Shown here: positions 13,621 through 22,753 of the stretch, in pieces
How the letters are laid out: the number at the start of each line of letters is the position of its first letter
Numbering within the stretch: the stretch's first letter is position 1
DNA from: a virus
Virus record (IMG/VR): IMGVR_UViG_3300020472_000184
Span: 1 to 22,753 of that record
Strand: one strand, 5' to 3'
DNA length: 22,753 bases
Notes under the pieces: model-generated
Databases searched by the model: none
Told to the model about the DNA's origin: nothing
The model's input: the letters and a program-made list of their open reading frames with translations, nothing else
Translations under genes and position numbers: made by a program

Positions 13621-14991
13621 ATGGCAACTACAAAAAACACATACACAGGGAATAATTCAACTACGGATTATTCATTTACATTTCCATATCTAAAACAAAC
13701 GGATATCAAGGTAACTCTTGATAACGTTGCAACTACAGCCTATACATTTCATGATGCTACAACAGTTCGATTCAATTCAGCTCCAGCCACTGACGCTGCT
13801 ATTGCTATTTATCGATCTACAGATGATAGTAATCTCGTTGCCACCTTCTACCCTGGCTCAGCTATTAGATCAAGTGATCTAAATGATAACTATACACAGA
13901 ACTTATACTCTACTCAAGAGAACACTAATGATGCTACTGAGGCTCTAGATAACTCTAGGGTCTTAGAAAGTGGTGACTATGTAAGTGCTATTACAAAGGC
14001 TAATGCAGCAGTAGCGACTGCTAACACAGCAGATACTAACGCTAGCGCTGCTGTAAGTACAGCTAACACAGCTTCAGCTTCAGCAACAAGTGCAGTTAAT
14101 ACAGCTAACACTGCAACTTCTACAGCTAACGGAGCAGTTACAACTGCTAACGCAGCTACAACTACAGCTAACGGAGCAGTTACAACTGCTAACGCAGCTA
14201 CAACTACAGCTAATGGTGCTGTTACAACTGCTAATGGAGCAGTTACAACTGCTAATGGTGCTGTAACTACAGCTAATACAGCTAATACAACAGCAGGTAA
14301 TGCTGTAACTACAGCTAACGCAGCTAATACAACAGCAGGTAATGCTGTAACTACAGCTAACGCAGCTACAGCTACAGCTAACACTGCTTCTACTAATGCA
14401 AGTGCTGCTGTTACGACTGCTAATAGTGCATCAGCTTCAGTTGCTGCTGCAGCTATTTATAAAGTAGTACCTGACTTATCTACACTAACAACTGATTACC
14501 CATTAACTGGTAATCAACCTTCACCACCAGGGCCAGATCCAAGTAATTTAGCACCTACTCCAGATGGTACTTATGTGCAGATTACTGATAGTACAGGAAT
14601 CTCATTAGCAAATGGTACTTGGGCTGGAGGTGATTTTTCTGGTTCTTCTAGTTTCCCTAATGGATTTGGTGGTAATCCCCAATTAACCTTAAGAGTAAAA
14701 GTAAGTAATGCATCCGCAGGTTCGGAAACTTATATTGCTCAAGAGTATTACGCTAATGATCCTGAAGCTAGATATGGAGAGGATAGAAAAGTAATTGTTG
14801 AAAGTAATCGAACAATTTCTGAGGACTACACCATCCAGACAACTATGAATGCTCATTCAGTTGGGCCTGTAACTCTCTCACATAATAGCACGGATCTAAC
14901 ATATAACGCTACAACATACGTCACTTCAAACTCTGCAACTGCAGGTTACACTGTAACAATCCCTGAAAACTCTACTTGGTTAATCTCTTAA
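13621..14991 (+). CDS. Tail fibre protein (T7 gp17-type N-terminus)
   Basis: 456 residues. Residues ~5-110 (YTGNNSTTDYSFTFPY, DIKVTLDNV, TTAYTF, then RSSDLNDNYTQNLYSTQE) match the N-terminal domain by which T7-like fibres attach to the tail. Residues ~125-275 form a long trimeric-type coiled coil of Ala/Thr/Asn heptads. Residues ~280-456 are beta-rich; the NRTISEDYTIQ…AHSVGPVTL and VTIPENSTWLI segments are, from memory, common in cyanophage fibre C-termini. The start is supported by AAGG at 13614-13617. The coding sequence ends one base before the next gene, a second fibre-like protein, so the distal fibre is probably assembled from several polypeptides. Confidence 0.9.
   Translation: MATTKNTYTGNNSTTDYSFTFPYLKQTDIKVTLDNVATTAYTFHDATTVRFNSAPATDAAIAIYRSTDDSNLVATFYPGSAIRSSDLNDNYTQNLYSTQENTNDATEALDNSRVLESGDYVSAITKANAAVATANTADTNASAAVSTANTASASATSAVNTANTATSTANGAVTTANAATTTANGAVTTANAATTTANGAVTTANGAVTTANGAVTTANTANTTAGNAVTTANAANTTAGNAVTTANAATATANTASTNASAAVTTANSASASVAAAAIYKVVPDLSTLTTDYPLTGNQPSPPGPDPSNLAPTPDGTYVQITDSTGISLANGTWAGGDFSGSSSFPNGFGGNPQLTLRVKVSNASAGSETYIAQEYYANDPEARYGEDRKVIVESNRTISEDYTIQTTMNAHSVGPVTLSHNSTDLTYNATTYVTSNSATAGYTVTIPENSTWLIS
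14101..14394 (+). repeat. Fourteen in-frame 21-bp repeats encoding coiled-coil heptads
   Basis: Residues 161-258 of the fibre are fourteen consecutive seven-residue units of the form TANGAVT, TANAATT or TAGNAVT. The DNA repeats with a 21-base period (ACAGCTAAC… or ACTGCTAAT…), and some neighbouring units are nearly identical at the base level, so copy number could change by slippage or recombination without breaking the frame, altering fibre length. Confidence 0.92.
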
Positions 14992-15898: not shown

Positions 15899-16638
15899 TG
15901 GTTAGTACTATTCATTTCAACAATGGTGGGCGTATTGGACTTGGTGTCCGTGAACGCCCTGACTGTAAAGGTGTTTGGAGTCTTGGGCCGAGAGAACCAT
16001 TTAAGGAGAACACTATAACTCCATTCCCTGGTGCTACAGCTGATGATACTGATTGGGGATTCGTCACACCAGATTGTCAAAACAGTCTTCAAGCCGATGG
16101 TTCTTCTTCTTGTTCTACTGCTGGAGCAAATGAATACTATCAAGCTGCAAATAAAGCGCTCGTATTCTATACTTCAATGTATTGGACTACTACTCACATC
16201 ACACAAGGTGCTGCTTCTGGCACCTATGAAGATGTCAGAAATATAGCCAATAATGATGGGTATGCCAGTGCCTACTCATGTCTAATCAACTATGCGAATC
16301 ACCCTATTGGTTGGAAATATGATTTACCTATAACATTATCTGGATTTTACTTACATGGTACATATGGAGCTTCTACTATAGACGGGCAAGGTGATCTACT
16401 CATTAAAACTTGGAACAGAAGTACTGATACTTGGACATTACATGAAACTGTTACTAGTGGAGCTGGTGGCACCGTCTTTGATGATGCAGATCCTGTTTTG
16501 CATACATTCGCAAATAATGCAGTATTGGTAGACGGTATTTCTCTAGAAACAGCTACTATTAATAATGCTTACATGGCAGTTTGTTATTTTGCTGGTGCTG
16601 ATGTCAATAGTGGTAAAGCAGTCTTAGGAGTATCATAA
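15898..16638 (+). CDS. Putative distal fibre or receptor-binding component, unknown family
   Basis: 246 residues, rich in Gly, Thr, Asn, Tyr and Trp, with 5 Cys and no long helices or membrane segments. The pattern (GRIGLGVRERPDCKGVWSLG at the start, many T/N-rich loops, and …DLPITLSGFYLHGTYGAS, LLIKTWNRSTDTWTLHETV strands) is that of a beta-sandwich exposed virion protein. It is locked between a small fibre-associated protein and the glycine-rich adhesin, overlapping each by one base. A carbohydrate-recognition role at the fibre tip is plausible from context; no domain is recognised with certainty. Confidence 0.7.
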   Translation: MVSTIHFNNGGRIGLGVRERPDCKGVWSLGPREPFKENTITPFPGATADDTDWGFVTPDCQNSLQADGSSSCSTAGANEYYQAANKALVFYTSMYWTTTHITQGAASGTYEDVRNIANNDGYASAYSCLINYANHPIGWKYDLPITLSGFYLHGTYGASTIDGQGDLLIKTWNRSTDTWTLHETVTSGAGGTVFDDADPVLHTFANNAVLVDGISLETATINNAYMAVCYFAGADVNSGKAVLGVS

Positions 16639-17516
16639 TGTATATAGGTAAACGCGGTAACAATAAGAACAATAATGGTATAATTAATCAAAGATTACAC
16701 CGAAGATTAGTTGAGTCGGGGAAACTCGTTGTTTCCGGAGGAGAAGGTGGTACTATAACATATGATGGTTTATATACCATCCATAGTTTTACAACTACTA
16801 CTGATTTTATATGGTCTGGTGAGGCTAGTGTTGAGTATGTACTCGTCGCAGGTGGCGGCGGTGCTGGTAATACAAATGGCTGGTACGCAGCAGGTGCTGG
16901 TGGTGGTGGCGGGGTCCTTGAGGGATCAACGACATTAACTAGTGGAACTTATACAATCACAGTTGGTGGTGGTGGTCAGGCGGGTTCCAGTGGTGGCGCT
17001 GGAACTGACTACGCTGATAATGGTGGCGACTCTATTTTCCCTGCTAGTGCTGGCACCATAACTGCTCTTGGTGGTGGAGCTGGTGGAGACAATGCTGATG
17101 TTGGTGATAACGGTGGCACAGGGGGCGGCGGCGGTCACGGCTCCGGTCCTGGTAGTGGTACACCTGGACCACCACTCCAAGGTTATGACGGTGGTACAAG
17201 TAGTGGGTACTCTTCAATGGGCGGCGGTGGCGGCGCAGGAGGAGCAGGTACTCAAAGAGATGGAGGCCCAGGTAGAACAGTTACTATCCGTGGTACTAGC
17301 GAAGTATTCGGTGGAGGCGGTGGAGCTGGTAACTATTCTACTGGCACAGCAACTGGTGCAGGAGGCACAGGTGGCGGTGGCGACGGTGCCGCTGGTCCCA
17401 ATGCCGGGACAGCTGGAACAACTAATACCGGTGGTGGCGGCGGTGGCGGCGGTGGCCATCAGGGTGCCCCAGGCGCTGGTGGCTCAGGTATTGTTATTTT
17501 AAAATACCTAACTTGA
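16638..17516 (+). CDS. Glycine-rich receptor-binding adhesin (gp38/PGII-like)
   Basis: 292 residues. A basic, Asn-rich N-terminus (residues 1-30) leads into TYDGLYTIHSFTTTTDFIWS and EYVLVAGGGGAG (~41-77), the standard entry to the phage glycine-rich domain; the rest is runs of G-G-G-G separated by short loops, closing with GGSGIVILKY. In the T4-like phage S16, gp38 with this composition folds as a bundle of polyglycine-II helices whose exposed loops contact the receptor. The local base composition is GC-rich (repeated GGT/GGC), unlike its A/T-rich neighbours, because of the glycine codons. As the last gene of the fibre cassette it probably determines host range. The loops between glycine runs (for example around residues 160-185) are the likely contact sites. 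Confidence 0.82.
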   Translation: MYIGKRGNNKNNNGIINQRLHRRLVESGKLVVSGGEGGTITYDGLYTIHSFTTTTDFIWSGEASVEYVLVAGGGGAGNTNGWYAAGAGGGGGVLEGSTTLTSGTYTITVGGGGQAGSSGGAGTDYADNGGDSIFPASAGTITALGGGAGGDNADVGDNGGTGGGGGHGSGPGSGTPGPPLQGYDGGTSSGYSSMGGGGGAGGAGTQRDGGPGRTVTIRGTSEVFGGGGGAGNYSTGTATGAGGTGGGGDGAAGPNAGTAGTTNTGGGGGGGGGHQGAPGAGGSGIVILKYLT

Positions 17517-17997: not shown

Positions 17998-18352
17998 ACA
18001 TGCTGTTGACGATAGAGACGAACAGCTAGCCCTCATCGGCGTAATGGTGAGATTAATTGTATTAGTATGGAGTGGAGCAATCCTTACTCTAGCTTATATT
18101 CAACTACCAGCTTATTTAGCTATCCCTGAACAGAAGTTTGATCCTACCTTTATTGCTAGTATTTTTACTTCAGTAATTGGATCCTTTGGTTTGAATATTA
18201 ATAAGAAAGATAAGAATGCCATGACTAAAGCTGACATGGAACAGATGATAGCTAAAGCTAATTCATCCCAAGGCTACCAAACGATCAGAGTAGTCACCCC
18301 GCTACAGATCAATGGAGCCGAAGTTGTCGAACCTACCAATGCAAACGAATGA
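17951..18352 (+). CDS. Two-TM membrane protein, holin-like candidate, TTG start
   Basis: 133 residues if started at the TTG at 17951. An N-terminal charged helix (INKIKHAVDDRDEQ) is followed by a membrane segment at ~26-50 (VMVRLIVLVWSGAILTLAYI), a second at ~66-82 (TFIASIFTSVIGSFGL), then a charged KKDKNAMTKADMEQ stretch and a polar tail. Two membrane helices with charged ends and a location between fibre and terminase genes, where T7 has its holin 17.5, fit a class II holin. No ATG exists before the first membrane segment; a CTG at 17981 is an alternative start. The stop overlaps the next start (ATGA). Confidence 0.68.
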   Translation: MEKTASPPKGLINKIKHAVDDRDEQLALIGVMVRLIVLVWSGAILTLAYIQLPAYLAIPEQKFDPTFIASIFTSVIGSFGLNINKKDKNAMTKADMEQMIAKANSSQGYQTIRVVTPLQINGAEVVEPTNANE

Positions 18353-18702
18353 ACAAATGGCTTTTACTCCTACTGTTGTTTCCTACAGCAGTAAGGGCAA
18401 ATCAAATAACACCACAGTTCACCCAAGGGAGCATGCAAGCTACCACAACCACGACACAAGTTGTAACCGAAGTAGTAGACCAGGAGGTATTTGGAGGTAC
18501 TTACAACAGCTGGTCAGGGACAAACGTAGTCCCAAGCGGAGATATAACAGACAGCAACACAACCTATACAGTACATACAGCAGGGGATCAGTATCAACTA
18601 GAGACTGTGACAAGACCTGCAGGAGTAGTAGAACAGATAGATATAACAAGAACAATTACTACAAACGCTGTTACTACATCCTTGTCGGTATTCTCGCAGT
18701 AA
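18349..18702 (+). CDS. Secreted small protein with Sec signal peptide
   Basis: 117 residues. MNKWLLLLLLFPTAVRA is a textbook Sec signal (basic start, Leu core, A-x-A cleavage site), leaving a ~100-residue mature chain rich in Thr/Ser/Val with no Cys. Segments FGGTYNSWSGTNVVPSGDI and DITRTITTNAVTTSLSVFSQ read as beta strands. From memory, closely similar proteins occur in cyanophages, always with an unknown role and next to another signal-peptide protein, as here. It would act in the periplasm or envelope late in infection. It begins within the stop of the previous gene (ATGA) and its end overlaps the next coding frame by about 60 bases. Confidence 0.78.
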   Translation: MNKWLLLLLLFPTAVRANQITPQFTQGSMQATTTTTQVVTEVVDQEVFGGTYNSWSGTNVVPSGDITDSNTTYTVHTAGDQYQLETVTRPAGVVEQIDITRTITTNAVTTSLSVFSQ

Positions 18703-19160
18703 GTAACCCAGCTATGGCTGAGGTTTATAACAATGCAGCTCCAACCTCCACTGCAACGGGCAACGTGACGAACCAGGCGGTGCAGTTCCAGAATAGTGGA
18801 TCACCGTCTAGACAAAACTATGGAGGTGGGATCGCCTGTAATGGTCCCACCATGACATTAACACCCTTTTATATGGGTAATGACACTATACCTTATGATA
18901 ATACAAGTTATGTAACGAGTAACAATTGGGGTGCCCAGCTTAACTTCATGGTACCGCTTGACTGGGGAACAGTTAACAGATGTAAAGCTATTGCTAAACG
19001 TCAAGAGGAAAAGCTACGGCTTGACTATGAACTTGTAAGAGCACTTAAATGTGCAGAGTTACAACAGAAAGGATTTACATTTAGACCAGGATCACGGGTA
19101 GAACACATGTGTCATGATGTTGTACCAATAGCATTACTAAACAAAACAACCACTGAATAA
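18642..19160 (+). CDS. Second signal-peptide protein; start codon unresolved
   Basis: The frame ending at TAA 19158-19160 encodes a clear protein: NKNNYYKR, a hydrophobic core YYILVGILAVS, cleavage site NPAMA|EV, then a ~145-residue mature part with CNGPTMTLTPFYMGN, WGAQLNFMVPLDWG, RQEEKLRLDYELVRALKCAE and RPGSRVEHMCHDV. Three or four Cys suggest disulfides in the periplasm. The difficulty is the start: no ATG, GTG, TTG or CTG lies in frame just before the signal peptide. The first in-frame ATG is at 18714, inside the cleavage site and too late for export; the only early ATG (18312) would require 110 unlikely residues overlapping the previous gene. ATC 18678 or ATT 18690 starts, or a base error in the sequence, are possibilities. 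The coordinate given here is the edge of the signal-like region, not a proven start. Confidence 0.72.
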   Translation, partial: YNKNNYYKRCYYILVGILAVSNPAMAEVYNNAAPTSTATGNVTNQAVQFQNSGSPSRQNYGGGIACNGPTMTLTPFYMGNDTIPYDNTSYVTSNNWGAQLNFMVPLDWGTVNRCKAIAKRQEEKLRLDYELVRALKCAELQQKGFTFRPGSRVEHMCHDVVPIALLNKTTTE

Positions 19161-19321
19161 TGGAACTACTATTTCTATCAGAACCCGCCTTTTGGGTGAT
19201 CATTGCACTAGCATCAGAACTGATCGCTTTGTCTCCACTTAAGGAGAACAGTGTCATCCAAAGTGTACAAACTCTACTCAATAAACTAAAGCCAAGTAAA
19301 GAAGAAGAGCGTAATGACTAA
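19160..19321 (+). CDS. Short single-TM protein, cyanophage type
   Basis: 53 residues, starting in the stop of the previous gene (TAATG). Residues 1-25 (MELLFLSEPAFWVIIALASE and on) form an N-terminal membrane segment with a conserved-looking Glu, followed by SPLKENSVIQSVQTLLNKLK, an amphipathic basic helix, and a charged tail KEEERND. From memory this small protein is common in cyanophage genomes beside terminase or lysis genes, always of unknown function. Its stop lies 8 bases into the small terminase gene. It may cooperate with the holin-like protein upstream, but nothing direct shows this. Confidence 0.72.
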   Translation: MELLFLSEPAFWVIIALASELIALSPLKENSVIQSVQTLLNKLKPSKEEERND

Positions 19322-19559
19322 GAAAGCTACAGAAGACCAATTTAATGAGTTGCACAATCTAGTTACTAAGGAGTTTCTTAAGAGGGTTAAGAGTGGTGAA
19401 GCTACCGCTCATGAACTCAAGGCTGCCTGTGATTGGCTAGTAAAGAATGATATTAGTGGTGTTGCTTTAGAAGGTAACCCATTACATAAGCTTGCAAGTG
19501 TTATGCCACAAATAGAACCTGAACTTGTACAGAGGAGACTGTATGGCAAAAAGTACTAG
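19314..19559 (+). CDS. Terminase small subunit (T7 gp18-like, DNA maturase A)
   Basis: 81 residues against 89 in T7 gp18. The segment FNELHNLVTKEFLKRVKSGE, then TAHELKAACDWLVKNDISGV, is the helical pattern of small terminases from T7-like phages; the C-terminus (EPELVQRRLYGKKY) is basic. It recognises or bridges the concatemeric DNA and the large subunit during packaging. It overlaps the upstream gene by 8 bases and the downstream gene by 17. Identification is from motif memory, size and location; the large subunit is 2.8 kb downstream rather than nearly adjacent, which is unusual. Confidence 0.68.
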   Translation: MTKKATEDQFNELHNLVTKEFLKRVKSGEATAHELKAACDWLVKNDISGVALEGNPLHKLASVMPQIEPELVQRRLYGKKY

Positions 19560-19785
19560 TTATTATAACAGTCATGCTGATGCGTTAAAGATCAAAAGAG
19601 CATACGCTAAGAAGCATAATGCTAAGCCATCTGAAGTTGCTAGACGTACTGCCCTAAATAAAGAAAACCGAAGGAGAGGTACCTATGGGAATGGTGATAA
19701 CTTGGATGTCTCGCATAAACAAGGAGGGGGCACCAAGCTCGAAGCCCAAAGCAAAAACAGAGCAAGAAACAGAGGAAAAGCGTGA
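19543..19785 (+). CDS. Small basic protein with HNH-like signature
   Basis: 80 residues from the ATG at 19543, chosen because GAGGAG lies just ahead of it; an upstream ATG at 19525 would add six residues. The protein is very basic. Its second half, LNKENRRRGTYGNGDNLDVS, then HKQGGGTKLEAQSKNRARNRG, is conserved-looking and resembles an HNH-type core: D55-x-x-H58, a glycine turn GGG at 61-63, and Asn72 where HNH folds have their Asn; the last His is replaced by Asn76. No other family is recognised. HNH proteins beside terminases help DNA cleavage during packaging in some phages, so a packaging or DNA-binding role is possible. Confidence 0.72.
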   Translation: MAKSTSYYNSHADALKIKRAYAKKHNAKPSEVARRTALNKENRRRGTYGNGDNLDVSHKQGGGTKLEAQSKNRARNRGKA

Positions 19786-19799
19786 GGAGGAGAAAGTAG

Positions 19800-21764
19800 A
19801 TGGCGGCACCAACTGAGCAAGGTAGTCTGACACTATTTACAACAAAAGAGTTACGTACACTGCGAGAGAAGATCCCTGAACATATTATAGACTGGTTTTT
19901 GCAGCAAGAACAAGTCTACAAAGTAACCAGGAATAAAGTTGTTAAAGAATTAAAAGCAAAATTACCACCTGATGATTACGACAAACTATACAATAAGCTG
20001 AAAAAACTAGAAGCAGCTGGAGATTTACCAGGAATACAGAAACTTTTAGGCTCTAAAAGTATAAAGACCAATGTCCAACCAACTTCTGTACAGACCGTAC
20101 TTATCGGGCGTAAGCCTAAAGTAAAACCACAGATCATTGATAATTCTAACATCATTAGAGGTATACCACCTGGTAGAGGTTTAAAAGCTTATAGAAAGTA
20201 TAAGGCATCTGAGAATGCTAAGATTAGAGAGTATGTACAAAACTTAGGTAAGAAGTACGACCTTAGATATCCAGAAGGACATCCAAAAGCTGGCTTATCT
20301 ATGGATATTGAACATATGTTCAGTTTAGGTGGTGGTGGGCCAGATGATCCAATATCCAAGTTTCCTGGGGCAAGTAATTATAATAGATTCATGAAAGAAC
20401 GAGATTCTTTCTCCCCAGCTGTAGCTTATATTACAACCTCACCAACTACATGGCGGGAGTCTGCTTCAAATTTTGTGTTAAATGATGCTAGTATATTTAC
20501 ACATAAAGATAGACTACGCTTACAACAGGCCTGGGATCCGAAGAATCCACACATACAAAGAGACCTCGCCTCTCAATTATTAGCGGAACGTGAGTTTTAC
20601 TTTGATAAGAATGCACCTGGATGGAGAAGGGATCCTGAAAAAGCTAGAGTACTACTAGACAGGACAATTAAAGCAGAAGAACCAAGTACATTAGCTTTAA
20701 TCCGTAATAGACAGGACCAATCAGCATACGAATCGATCCAACGAAAAGTAGATAGAAATGATCCAAAGGCACGATGGGACCCATATAAAGACGACCACTG
20801 GACGTCAGTAGATGTAGGGAGGGATCCATTACCAAGCCAGGTATCATTACCAGAGCCTGGATTAGAGGAACGGATTATTTACGATGAAGCGTTGCAGGAA
20901 AGACTTGATGCATCATCTAAACGTAGACTTGAGCAGCCACAGAATCAAGAAATTGTAAGGGTAGAGGATCATTCAAGAGATAGAAGTTTTGATGTAGAAA
21001 ATGAAAAGGTAAAGAAATTGAGAAGGCTAGCATATGGAGCCACAGCCTTCACATTAGCAACTTCTATAGTCAATCCACTTAATGCTAAAGCTCAAGTAGA
21101 AGGTGTTGAAGCACGTTATGATATAGCAACTAGAACTAAAAAGTTAACAGATTGGCTTGCATTAGGTCTAGAAGCCTTATCAGGAGCAGCAGAACCATGG
21201 GGAATACCAGGTGAAAAAGTAGCAAGTACAGCAGACCTACTACTATTAGGCATGGATGGCCCTGAAATGTGGGAAGAGATGCAGCAACCTGGACAATGGG
21301 ATCGAGTGGAAACTAAAGAAAAAGAAGAACAAGATCGAGCAAGAACTGCTGTCTATGATTACCATGGAGAGAATGAGCCGCCAGAATTCGGAGGCCATCA
21401 ATTAAGGCCTTCAGAACAGAGAAAATCAGATGTAGATCCTTTGACAGCTAATCTTAGAACACCAAATATAGTAAAAGCCAAAGCAGATGCTGCTGCATAT
21501 GATGTTGCAGAACAGCAGAAGAAACAAGCTATAGAACGTGAATTAGCTATAAAAGCTGACGTACAACAACAGAGAGAAGCTGGTGAAGATACTATCGAAG
21601 GTGATTACAGATACACTGGTGACGGTAGGATACCTGTAATATCAGACATAAGTGATGCTTTTCATAAGTCAGTATATACTAAGCAAGGCTTCAAAAGTGA
21701 CTACACACCACTCCAAAAAGGTCTACAATCTATACACCAATTTCTAACAGAGATAGTACAATGA
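19800..21764 (+). CDS. Large unknown protein with HNH-like signature, between the terminase genes
   Basis: 654 residues with a strong Shine-Dalgarno (GAGGAGGAG, 19784-19792). Residues 1-100 are helical and basic. Residues ~155-205 (YPEGHPKAGLSMDIEHMFSL, then GGGGPDD…GASNYNRFMKE) have an HNH-like outline: D169-x-x-H172, a glycine stretch, and Asn193/Asn195. Residues ~210-400 are charged, with several tryptophans and DP/RDP elements. Residues 408-433 (RRLAYGATAFTLATSIVNPL, then NAKA) look like a twin-Arg or Sec-type hydrophobic segment with an A-x-A site in mid-protein. The C-terminal 200 residues are acidic and helical. No named family is recognised. It could be a virion-packaged nuclease or a packaging accessory protein; its stop overlaps the next start (ATGA). 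Confidence 0.8.
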   Translation: MAAPTEQGSLTLFTTKELRTLREKIPEHIIDWFLQQEQVYKVTRNKVVKELKAKLPPDDYDKLYNKLKKLEAAGDLPGIQKLLGSKSIKTNVQPTSVQTVLIGRKPKVKPQIIDNSNIIRGIPPGRGLKAYRKYKASENAKIREYVQNLGKKYDLRYPEGHPKAGLSMDIEHMFSLGGGGPDDPISKFPGASNYNRFMKERDSFSPAVAYITTSPTTWRESASNFVLNDASIFTHKDRLRLQQAWDPKNPHIQRDLASQLLAEREFYFDKNAPGWRRDPEKARVLLDRTIKAEEPSTLALIRNRQDQSAYESIQRKVDRNDPKARWDPYKDDHWTSVDVGRDPLPSQVSLPEPGLEERIIYDEALQERLDASSKRRLEQPQNQEIVRVEDHSRDRSFDVENEKVKKLRRLAYGATAFTLATSIVNPLNAKAQVEGVEARYDIATRTKKLTDWLALGLEALSGAAEPWGIPGEKVASTADLLLLGMDGPEMWEEMQQPGQWDRVETKEKEEQDRARTAVYDYHGENEPPEFGGHQLRPSEQRKSDVDPLTANLRTPNIVKAKADAAAYDVAEQQKKQAIERELAIKADVQQQREAGEDTIEGDYRYTGDGRIPVISDISDAFHKSVYTKQGFKSDYTPLQKGLQSIHQFLTEIVQ

Positions 21765-21940
21765 ACACCCAAGGAATGACATCAGCAGGGCAGAACTTCC
21801 AATTCTGCCGTACTGCTAGACCACATAGCGACTTCGGCCCAATGAAAGTCGTTAAGTATGAACCATTTACAGATATGGAGATTGCACAGTTAGATGCACT
21901 AATCAAGAAGAATCTGAACGAACTATTTGACCCAATTTAA
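21761..21940 (+). CDS. 59-residue protein of unknown function
   Basis: The ATG at 21761 overlaps the previous stop (ATGA) and the frame ends with TAA at 21938-21940. The product (HSDFGPMKVVKYEPFTDMEI, then AQLDALIKKNLNELFDPI) has a short beta-like segment and an acidic C-terminal helix, no membrane segment and one Cys. The overlap and the 2-base gap to the next ATG argue that it is translated as part of the packaging operon. Function unknown. Confidence 0.65.
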   Translation: MNTQGMTSAGQNFQFCRTARPHSDFGPMKVVKYEPFTDMEIAQLDALIKKNLNELFDPI

Positions 21941-21942
21941 TT

Positions 21943-22398
21943 ATGGCAGATAATCCTTACAAATCAAAACGACAAACTGGGTATGGTGCGACAAAACCAT
22001 CTAATACAGGTTATGGACCATACACACCAGAGCACCCTTCAGTAGTCCCTATCACCCCACCAGTTAAGAAAGCTCAGCTGCCAAATGCACTTGAGGTATG
22101 TGAGAAAATCCAAGCGGATTACATGACGAAGTTGGATCTTATATATGAAGCAATGCCCACAACAGCCAATCGTATCAATCGCGACAACTACGCAAAAGAG
22201 TTACAACAGAGTTGTGAAGAAAAGGCGAGGGGAATGGGCTATTTCGATCCTATCAATGATATAAGAGATTTCCTTTTTGGAGGCGATGATCAAGCTTTAA
22301 TCCCAAATCATGGTGATAAAGATGAACATGGAAATACACCTAGACCTACTCCAGACGGGCAACCAATACAGCCACTGCCAGGCCCATTTAAAGCATGA
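21943..22398 (+). CDS. Unknown soluble protein upstream of the large terminase
   Basis: 151 residues. Residues 1-45 are disordered (Y/G/P/T-rich, with repeated TGYG), residues ~47-110 form a helical, charged core with two Cys (ALEVCEKIQADYMTKLDLIY and QQSCEEKARGMGYFDP), and the end is Pro/Gly-rich. No catalytic motif or membrane segment is seen. Its stop overlaps the large terminase start (ATGA), so production is probably tied to terminase. It may be a packaging cofactor; this is inference from position. Confidence 0.7.
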   Translation: MADNPYKSKRQTGYGATKPSNTGYGPYTPEHPSVVPITPPVKKAQLPNALEVCEKIQADYMTKLDLIYEAMPTTANRINRDNYAKELQQSCEEKARGMGYFDPINDIRDFLFGGDDQALIPNHGDKDEHGNTPRPTPDGQPIQPLPGPFKA

Positions 22399-22753
22399 CA
22401 GACGTACTTACCGCCCTCCAAGACGACTTTAAACTATTCTTACAAGCATTATGGGGGCAACTTGACCTACCTAGTCCAACACGTGCCCAGTATGCAATTG
22501 CAGACTACTTACAAAATGGTCCGAAGCGTCTCCAGATCCAAGCCTTCCGTGGTGTTGGTAAATCATGGATTACTGGAGCGTTTGTGCTTTGGACTTTATT
22601 TAAAGATCCAGAACGAAAAATAATGATTATATCAGCCTCTAAGGAACGGGCTGATAACATGTCTATCTTCTTGCAAAAACTAATCATTGAAACACCATGG
22701 CTGAATCACTTGCAACCCAAATCGGACGAATCCAGATGGTCGCGTATAAGCTT
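22395..22753 (+). CDS. Terminase large subunit (T7 gp19-like, DNA maturase B), 3' end outside window
   Basis: 119 complete codons of a protein that is about 590 residues in T7. The start (DDFKLFLQALWGQLDLPSPT, then RAQYAIADYLQNGPKRLQIQ) and the Walker A loop at residues 51-58 (FRGVGKSW, with Lys56 and Ser57) followed by KIMIISASKERADNMS are typical of the ATPase domain of the T7-like terminase motor, which pumps DNA into the prohead and cuts it with a C-terminal nuclease. The ATG overlaps the preceding stop (ATGA). The fragment is truncated at the window edge. Confidence 0.93.
   Translation, partial: MTDVLTALQDDFKLFLQALWGQLDLPSPTRAQYAIADYLQNGPKRLQIQAFRGVGKSWITGAFVLWTLFKDPERKIMIISASKERADNMSIFLQKLIIETPWLNHLQPKSDESRWSRIS

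What the first reader, a model, noticed from the sequence alone, without database searches (positions are those of the whole stretch)
19543..21764. Two proteins with HNH-like signatures between the terminase subunits
The 80-residue protein (D55-x-x-H58, GGG, N72) and the 654-residue protein (D169-x-x-H172, GGGG, N193/N195) each show a D-x-x-H … glycine turn … Asn pattern. They are adjacent and lie between small and large terminase. Phages with cos ends use HNH partners of terminase, but T7-like phages are not known for this. A two-component nuclease or packaging module would be new for this group.
Basis: partly seen in the sequence, partly recalled or inferred. Interest (0 to 1): 0.65.

Follow-up and report, generated by a model that had tools for sequence, protein, structure and literature searches.

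The report
Polymorphic nuclease locus between terminase genes
In marine viruses related to phage T7, the gap between the two DNA-packaging genes holds a conserved small nuclease-like protein and a large nuclease-bearing protein that is swapped for an unrelated-looking version even between near-identical viruses, much like the interchangeable toxin heads bacteria use to fight each other.

Summary
Both proteins lie where stated, carry D-x-x-H...Gly...Asn, and gain conservation and fold support. In the 80-aa family (phrog_6437), D55, H58 and N72 are 97-98% conserved in 128 relatives, and the model ends in beta-beta-alpha. The 654-aa protein has no full-length relative, but residues 114-265 align with nuclease domains of 37 other proteins from the same genomic slot (H172 invariant, N195 at least 90%). 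They are modelled as beta-beta-alpha, and their best structure matches are almost all HNH nucleases, each weak.

HNH genes between small and large terminase are already annotated in T7-like cyanophages (P-SSP7 gp49, Syn5 gp51), and P-SSP7 has direct terminal repeats, not cos ends. The two proteins are not a fixed pair: the 80-aa protein is near-constant, the large one hypervariable. Of 103 phage pairs with at least 99% identical TerL N-termini, 76 carry dissimilar large proteins. Large proteins that share a part share either the nuclease or the rest (28 and 24 of 53 pairs).

Best reading: a polymorphic, modular beta-beta-alpha-metal nuclease locus, probably used against competing phages (role inferred). 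New variant of a known kind.

The parts
19314..19559 (+). terminase small subunit (context)
   Evidence: PF11123 E 1.5e-15; phrog_891 E 2.7e-21
19543..19785 (+). 80-aa protein, phrog_6437 family: lysine/arginine-rich helices followed by a predicted beta-beta-alpha
   Evidence: phrog_6437 E 1.8e-16; 583 relatives in IMG/VR; AF2 pLDDT 87, strands 54-58 and 64-68, helix 69-74
19705..19758 (+). D55-V-S-H58 ... N72 of the 80-aa protein (candidate catalytic/metal residues)
   Evidence: 97-98% conserved in 128 sequences
19800..21764 (+). 654-aa large protein: orphan member of the hypervariable slot
   Evidence: no full-length relative in phage records, IMG/VR or PDB; same position as unrelated-looking large proteins in L002-L005
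20154..20459 (+). nuclease domain of the 654-aa protein, residues 119-220
   Evidence: profile built without the window: E 8.3e-4 in 3815 ORFs; hhalign 92.7% against at most 3.9% for null fragments; beta-beta-alpha model pLDDT 83
20304..20384 (+). D169-I-E-H172 ... N195 of the 654-aa protein (candidate catalytic/metal residues)
   Evidence: H172 invariant and N195 at least 90% in alignment A6
21009..21257 (+). possible helical module shared with other large proteins (residues 404-486), lead only
   Evidence: phmmer to L177 E 0.0034; not recovered by the independent profile
21761..21940 (+). 59-aa ORF (phrog_1286, weak) that borders the variable slot in the window's clade
   Evidence: 71-95% identity in the sister loci, directly after the variable protein
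21943..22398 (+). 151-aa ORF, variable
   Evidence: its ~96-aa relatives in L002, L004 and L005 do not track the large protein
22395..22753 (+). terminase large subunit, N-terminal part, runs off the window
   Evidence: phrog_38 E 4.4e-26

Best explanation
The interval between terS and terL in this group of marine T7-like phages is a nuclease locus with two layers. The constant layer is the 80-aa protein: a small basic protein ending in a predicted beta-beta-alpha with near-invariant Asp, His and Asn. Many relatives add a canonical ~109-aa HNH enzyme, which the window's clade lacks. The variable layer is a large modular protein, here the 654-aa protein: a beta-beta-alpha-metal nuclease domain (here residues about 119-220) joined to one of several other modules. 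Nuclease and remaining modules are reshuffled between phages, as in bacterial polymorphic toxins. Inferred mechanism: the large protein is made late with the packaging genes; H172 acts as general base and N195 (with D169) helps hold one divalent metal ion; it cuts DNA. Because the protein is exchanged faster than the terminases around it and has no constant partner, its most likely use is against DNA that differs from its own, above all that of co-infecting relatives, by interference and/or by copying its own cassette into the cut genome. Shown: positions, conservation, domain similarity, modularity, rate of exchange. Inferred: catalysis, timing, target, benefit. Step by step I give about 0.8 to 'nuclease domain in the 654-aa protein', 0.6 to 'the 80-aa protein is an active nuclease', 0.5 to the whole account.
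For: Conserved D/H/N and beta-beta-alpha model for the 80-aa protein. Domain profile built without the window reaches it at E 8.3e-4, and independently reaches P-SSP7 gp50 (9e-15 in the first round), S-CBP1 (4e-11) and the canonical 109-aa HNH proteins in register (0.005). Alignment of 38 domains with invariant H172. That alignment's profile finds only four PDB sequences at E<=10, all nucleases of this superfamily: EssD 8guo E 0.022 and Cas8-HNH fusions E about 0.9. The model of residues 114-265 has beta-beta-alpha, pLDDT 83, pTM 0.69, and nearly all of the 50 listed Foldseek rows are HNH nucleases (Cas9 HNH, ScoMcrA, Cap5), though each is weak (best E 0.36). Members L128, L048 and L117 match PHROG HNH/endonuclease VII families (E to 9e-7); L185 and L033 match Pfam AHH at the motif (E 0.0013 and 0.017, below cut-off). 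Exchange: 76 of 103 pairs with at least 99% identical TerL N-termini have dissimilar large proteins. Modularity: 28 partial pairs share the nuclease, 24 the rest, 1 mixed.
Against: No cleavage data. The window's domain is an orphan: 8-21% identity to the aligned domains, no Pfam, PHROG, NCBIfam or PDB hit of its own. The AF2 model rests on an alignment that I assembled from sequences already suspected of this fold, without a null run. HMMER and hhalign place H163 (P-E-G-H), not H172, on the His column; MAFFT and the model favour H172. The 80-aa model has no significant PDB match. Many large proteins in loci with the 109-aa HNH show no recognisable nuclease (41 of 92). No immunity gene was found. 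In Syn5 the same slot encodes proteins annotated as structural.
Confidence: 0.5

Rival explanations
1. Homing or selfish endonucleases: the large proteins are mobile nuclease genes that use the conserved terminase flanks to copy themselves into competitors, with no benefit to the phage needed.
For: Fast replacement between highly conserved flanks; an HNH homing endonuclease of a phage is known to act in interference competition (PMC11620839).
Against: The proteins are large (250-650 aa) and share non-nuclease modules that persist while the nuclease is swapped; no NUMOD-type DNA-binding module was among the Pfam families listed; the closest PDB sequence is a secreted type VII effector, EssD.
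Confidence: 0.25
2. Packaging partner: the large protein and the 80-aa protein are HNH-type partners of terminase that help cut concatemers, replacing the canonical 109-aa HNH in the window's clade.
For: Position between terS and terL; HNH proteins next to terminase are known packaging components (PMC5304195). Loci without the 109-aa HNH have a nuclease-like large protein more often (44 of 50 against 51 of 92, Fisher p 7e-5), and the 59-aa ORF and the 109-aa HNH never co-occur (0 of 22).
Against: A packaging enzyme should follow its terminase, but the large protein is replaced when TerL is nearly identical. P-SSP7 has direct terminal repeats, not cos (PMC3350473). Many loci have both the 109-aa HNH and a nuclease-bearing large protein (30 by profile). 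The 44/50 contrast is inflated by longer proteins, and a few contigs are counted twice.
Confidence: 0.2
3. Virion or ejected protein: the large proteins are late structural or internal proteins and the nuclease travels in the particle.
For: Syn5 gp53, gp54 and gp58 and two large S-TIP28 proteins in the same slot are annotated as structural; the C-terminal module of P-SSP7 gp50 also occurs in Campylobacter phage proteins annotated as membrane protein or endolysin.
Against: Syn5 gp53/gp54 show no similarity to the nuclease profile or to any large protein here except S-TIP28's; no virion proteomics of a nuclease-bearing member was found in the papers held.
Confidence: 0.15
4. Chance motif: D-x-x-H with glycines and Asn in a structural or disordered protein, without a metal site.
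For: Orphan sequence, weak individual scores.
Against: Profile, hhalign null test, alignment column conservation and model agree.
Confidence: 0.12

Closest known systems
Prochlorococcus phage P-SSP7 gp47-gp48-gp49-gp50-gp19 (AY939843) and Synechococcus phage Syn5 gp49-gp60
   Same: Same gene order: terS, 80-aa family protein (Syn5 gp50, E 3e-24), variable large protein(s), terL. P-SSP7 gp50 has the nuclease domain (E 9e-15) that the window's protein matches weakly.
   Different: The window lacks the canonical ~109-aa HNH gene (gp49/gp51), and its large protein is not a full-length homologue of gp50 or of Syn5 gp53/gp54.
Bacterial polymorphic toxins with HNH/EndoVII-superfamily nuclease domains (PF14412 AHH; Zhang et al. 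2012, PMC3482391, abstract only read) and the type VII effector EssD (8guo)
   Same: Interchangeable beta-beta-alpha nuclease domain on persistent other modules; D-x-G-H...GG...N...N pattern as in EssD.
   Different: Phage gene in a packaging cluster, no secretion system, no immunity gene recognised; the nuclease can be N- or C-terminal.
Terminase-associated HNH proteins of cos phages (HK97 gp74 type; Kala et al. 2014, cited in PMC5304195)
   Same: HNH-superfamily gene next to the terminase genes.
   Different: Those are small canonical HNH proteins; the window's two proteins lack the CxxC zinc knuckle and any Pfam HNH match, and the relative P-SSP7 has terminal repeats, not cos.
HNH homing endonuclease used in interference competition (phiPA3 gp210, PMC11620839)
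   Same: Possible way of working: a nuclease deployed against a co-infecting relative.
   Different: gp210 is intron-encoded and targets a specific sequence; these are free-standing modular proteins of unknown specificity.
PHROG family phrog_6437 (unknown function)
   Same: The 80-aa protein is a member (E 1.8e-16).
   Different: The family carries no function in PHROGs; here it gets a beta-beta-alpha model and a near-invariant D/H/N set.

Membership tests
beta-beta-alpha-metal (HNH/His-Me finger) superfamily, 654-aa protein | beta-hairpin plus helix with a catalytic His at the end of strand 1 | tested here: met
   AF2 of residues 114-265: strands at 168-172 and 187-191, helix 192-197, H172 at the strand end. 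Prediction only, on an alignment assembled here.
beta-beta-alpha-metal (HNH/His-Me finger) superfamily, 654-aa protein | His and helix Asn/His conserved in relatives | tested here: met
   H172 invariant, N195 at least 90% in 38 domains; HMMER and hhalign offer H163 as an alternative
beta-beta-alpha-metal (HNH/His-Me finger) superfamily, 654-aa protein | fold match to solved members | tested here: inconclusive
   nearly all listed Foldseek rows are HNH nucleases but best E is 0.36; VIA Z at most 3.2
beta-beta-alpha-metal (HNH/His-Me finger) superfamily, 654-aa protein | metal-dependent nucleic acid cleavage | not testable with these tools
   needs a biochemical assay
Pfam HNH (PF01844) and relatives, both window proteins | score above the curated cut-off | tested here: not met
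   no Pfam match for either protein; the separate 109-110-aa HNH of relatives passes
beta-beta-alpha-metal superfamily, 80-aa protein | beta-beta-alpha with conserved Asp/His on strand 1 and Asn in the helix | tested here: met
   prediction only
beta-beta-alpha-metal superfamily, 80-aa protein | fold match to solved members | tested here: inconclusive
   no significant match; the motif is only about 25 residues
Terminase-associated HNH packaging proteins (HK97 gp74 type) | canonical small HNH protein beside terminase | tested here: not met
   neither window protein matches an HNH model
Terminase-associated HNH packaging proteins (HK97 gp74 type) | cos-type genome ends | not testable with these tools
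   window is a 22.7-kb fragment; relative P-SSP7 has direct terminal repeats (PMC3350473)
Polymorphic toxin architecture | nuclease domain exchanged against persistent other modules | tested here: met
   28 pairs share nuclease only, 24 the other part only, 1 mixed. Shown for the locus, not for the window's own protein, whose best module partner has E 0.003
Polymorphic toxin architecture | adjacent cognate immunity gene | tested here: inconclusive
   the ORF before terL is the same family in L002, L004 and L005 although their large proteins differ
Homing endonuclease | site-specific cut in the cassette-less allele and copying of the cassette | not testable with these tools
   needs cleavage and cross experiments
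phrog_6437 | profile match | tested here: met
   E 1.8e-16 over residues 2-78

The most novel reading that the evidence does not exclude
Marine T7-like phages keep a dedicated slot between the terminase genes for interchangeable nuclease effectors built like bacterial polymorphic toxins, and use them against co-infecting phages; the terminase flanks act as recombination handles that let new nuclease alleles spread.
Probability: 0.35. Interest if true: 0.8.

Novelty: new variant of a known kind. Interest (0 to 1): 0.6.

Why it matters
T7-like cyanophages are well-studied ocean phages, yet the large genes between their terminases are annotated 'hypothetical' or 'structural'. Reading them as one modular nuclease locus explains why they look unrelated from phage to phage, gives phrog_6437 a testable active site, and offers a system in cultured phages (P-SSP7, S-TIP37) for asking whether phages use polymorphic nucleases to compete inside one host cell.

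Tried and rejected
Full-length relatives of the 654-aa protein: none in phage records, in three IMG/VR scans with the whole protein, the nuclease part and the C-terminal part, in GTDB genome contigs with the nuclease part or in PDB sequences. The IMG/VR and GTDB scans need exact 8-residue seeds, so distant relatives could be missed. Foldseek and VIA search of the 80-aa model: nothing significant; not read as absence. C-terminal module link to P-SSP7 gp50: an iterative search seemed to give it, but a profile built without the window did not recover the window; dropped to a lead. Idea that the 109-aa HNH and nuclease-bearing large proteins simply replace each other: weakened, since many loci have both. 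NCBIfam scans of the large proteins added nothing on nuclease function. Direct similarity between the 80-aa protein and the large-protein nuclease profile: hhalign 0.4%, so shared ancestry of the two is not claimed. Rfam scan of the window: nothing. No cleavage, expression or virion data could be obtained.

Full report
What is there. The window is a 22,753-base virus record carrying the structural and packaging genes of a T7-like marine podovirus, probably a cyanophage: the TerL N-terminus is 92% identical to Synechococcus phage S-RIP2. Between terS and terL lie, in order, an 80-aa ORF, a 654-aa ORF, a 59-aa ORF and a 151-aa ORF. The pattern is rare in shuffles (0.03% and 0.05%), but it was defined after the fact.

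The 80-aa protein. It belongs to phrog_6437, unknown function (E 1.8e-16). It follows terS in many cyanophages, including P-SSP7 gp48 and Syn5 gp50 (E 3e-24); 583 IMG/VR stretches encode relatives, and relatives also occur in Flavobacterium phages and in siphovirus S-CBS2, where no adjacent terminase is annotated. Over 128 non-identical sequences the most conserved residues are D55 (98%), H58 (97%), N72 (98%), R73 and G51 (96%). AF2 with 105 sequences gives pLDDT 87 with helices followed by strand 54-58, strand 64-68 and helix 69-74: the beta-beta-alpha order, with D55/H58 on strand 1 and N72 in the helix. No PDB match is significant, as may happen for so small a motif.

The 654-aa protein. 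It has no full-length relative in any collection searched. In its closest sister phages (L002-L005: terS 97-100%, TerL N-terminus 100% where present, 59-aa ORF 93-95% identical) the same position holds different large proteins of 549, 510, 473 and 462 aa. Across pairs of loci with at least 99% TerL N-terminal identity, 76 of 103 pairs have large proteins with no detectable similarity, 7 share a part and 20 are homologous throughout; a few contigs were fetched twice and add to the homologous pairs, so the exchange is if anything underestimated.

The large proteins are nuclease carriers. Many contain D-x-G-H, L-D-H or H-H signatures (33 of 41 loci without the 109-aa HNH, 11.7 expected from shuffles; 33 of 86 with it, 13.7 expected). 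A profile from 16 such domains, window left out, finds P-SSP7 gp50 (E 9e-15) and the S-CBP1 large protein (4e-11). After iteration it covers about 50 large proteins, reaches the canonical HNH proteins in register (0.005), and matches the window at residues 120-220 with E 8.3e-4 among 3815 ORFs; hhalign gives 92.7% against at most 3.9% for 37 unrelated fragments and 1.2% for 40 shuffles. In a 38-sequence alignment H172 is invariant and N195 nearly so, with textbook HNH members (L048, L128, L051, L134) in register. L128, L048 and L117 match PHROG HNH or endonuclease VII families. The profile of this alignment finds only four PDB sequences at E<=10, EssD and three Cas8-HNH fusions. AF2 of residues 114-265 gives pLDDT 83, pTM 0.69, beta-beta-alpha; nearly all listed Foldseek rows are HNH nucleases, none individually significant (best E 0.36; VIA Z up to 3.2).

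Limits of that evidence. The window's domain shares only 8-21% identity with the others. The AF2 alignment was assembled from sequences already suspected of the fold, and no null prediction was possible. HMMER and hhalign place H163 rather than H172 on the His column; the strand prediction and the following glycine loop favour H172. E-values are for a small ORF set after iteration.

Modularity. Among large proteins with a nuclease call that share only part of their length, 28 pairs share the nuclease and differ elsewhere, 24 share the other part and differ in the nuclease, and 1 is mixed. Examples: L003/L004 share the C-terminal 220 residues at 64% with different N-terminal nucleases; L097/L103 share an N-terminal module; L026, L029, L031, L032 and L035 share an N-terminal ~140-residue module with C-terminal HH-type nucleases that mostly differ. 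This is the architecture of bacterial polymorphic toxins. No constant immunity partner was seen: the ORF just before terL belongs to one family in L002, L004 and L005 although their large proteins differ.

Interpretation. Canonical HNH genes between the terminases are annotated in P-SSP7, S-TIP37 and Syn5, and P-SSP7 has direct terminal repeats. The 80-aa protein is a near-constant component; the large protein is a fast-exchanging nuclease carrier. Use in conflict or spread against competing phages fits best but is inferred; packaging, homing and ejected-protein rivals remain open. Loci without the 109-aa HNH more often have a nuclease-like large protein (44 of 50 against 51 of 92, p 7e-5), which leaves room for partial functional overlap; longer proteins and duplicate contigs bias that count.

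Literature. No paper found in the library describes this locus as a polymorphic nuclease system; subscription papers on cyanopodovirus genomes, including Pope et al. 2007 on Syn5 (not held), could not be read, so prior description cannot be excluded.

Noticed in passing
window 18312-19160 and 18349-18702: Two ORFs overlapping in different frames both match PHROGs strongly (phrog_1755 E 1e-49 / phrog_848 E 2e-46, and phrog_650 E 4e-33); the 117-aa one starts with a signal-peptide-like stretch. Looks like a true overlapping gene pair just upstream of terS.
   Followed up: no
L109:2082-3155 and L110:3363-4436: A photosystem II psbA-like gene appears to sit inside the terS-terL interval, between the variable large protein and terL (one member of the scanned set matches psbA; its C-terminus reads as PsbA).
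   Followed up: no
L086:5051-6754 (P-SSP7 gp50), C-terminal residues about 440-541: A hydrophobic helical module is shared with Campylobacter phage proteins annotated as membrane protein or endolysin (E about 1e-6; phrog_38472 E 1e-9) and with L009, L041, L092 and L156.
   Followed up: partly
window clade with the 59-aa ORF (window, L002-L005, L091-L107): The canonical 109-aa HNH gene is absent from all 22 intervals that have the 59-aa ORF, and present in 84 of the other 106 (a few contigs counted twice).
   Followed up: partly
L107:1682-2212 and L105:862-2181: Extra genes inserted between terS and the 80-aa gene in single loci (a 177-aa ORF that looks sulfotransferase-like; a 440-aa ORF), so this junction is an insertion point too.
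   Followed up: no
window 16638-17516: 292-aa protein made largely of glycine-rich stretches, in the tail-fibre region.
   Followed up: no
window 13621-14991: 456-aa tail-fibre-like protein with many short TTANA-type repeats in its middle.
   Followed up: no
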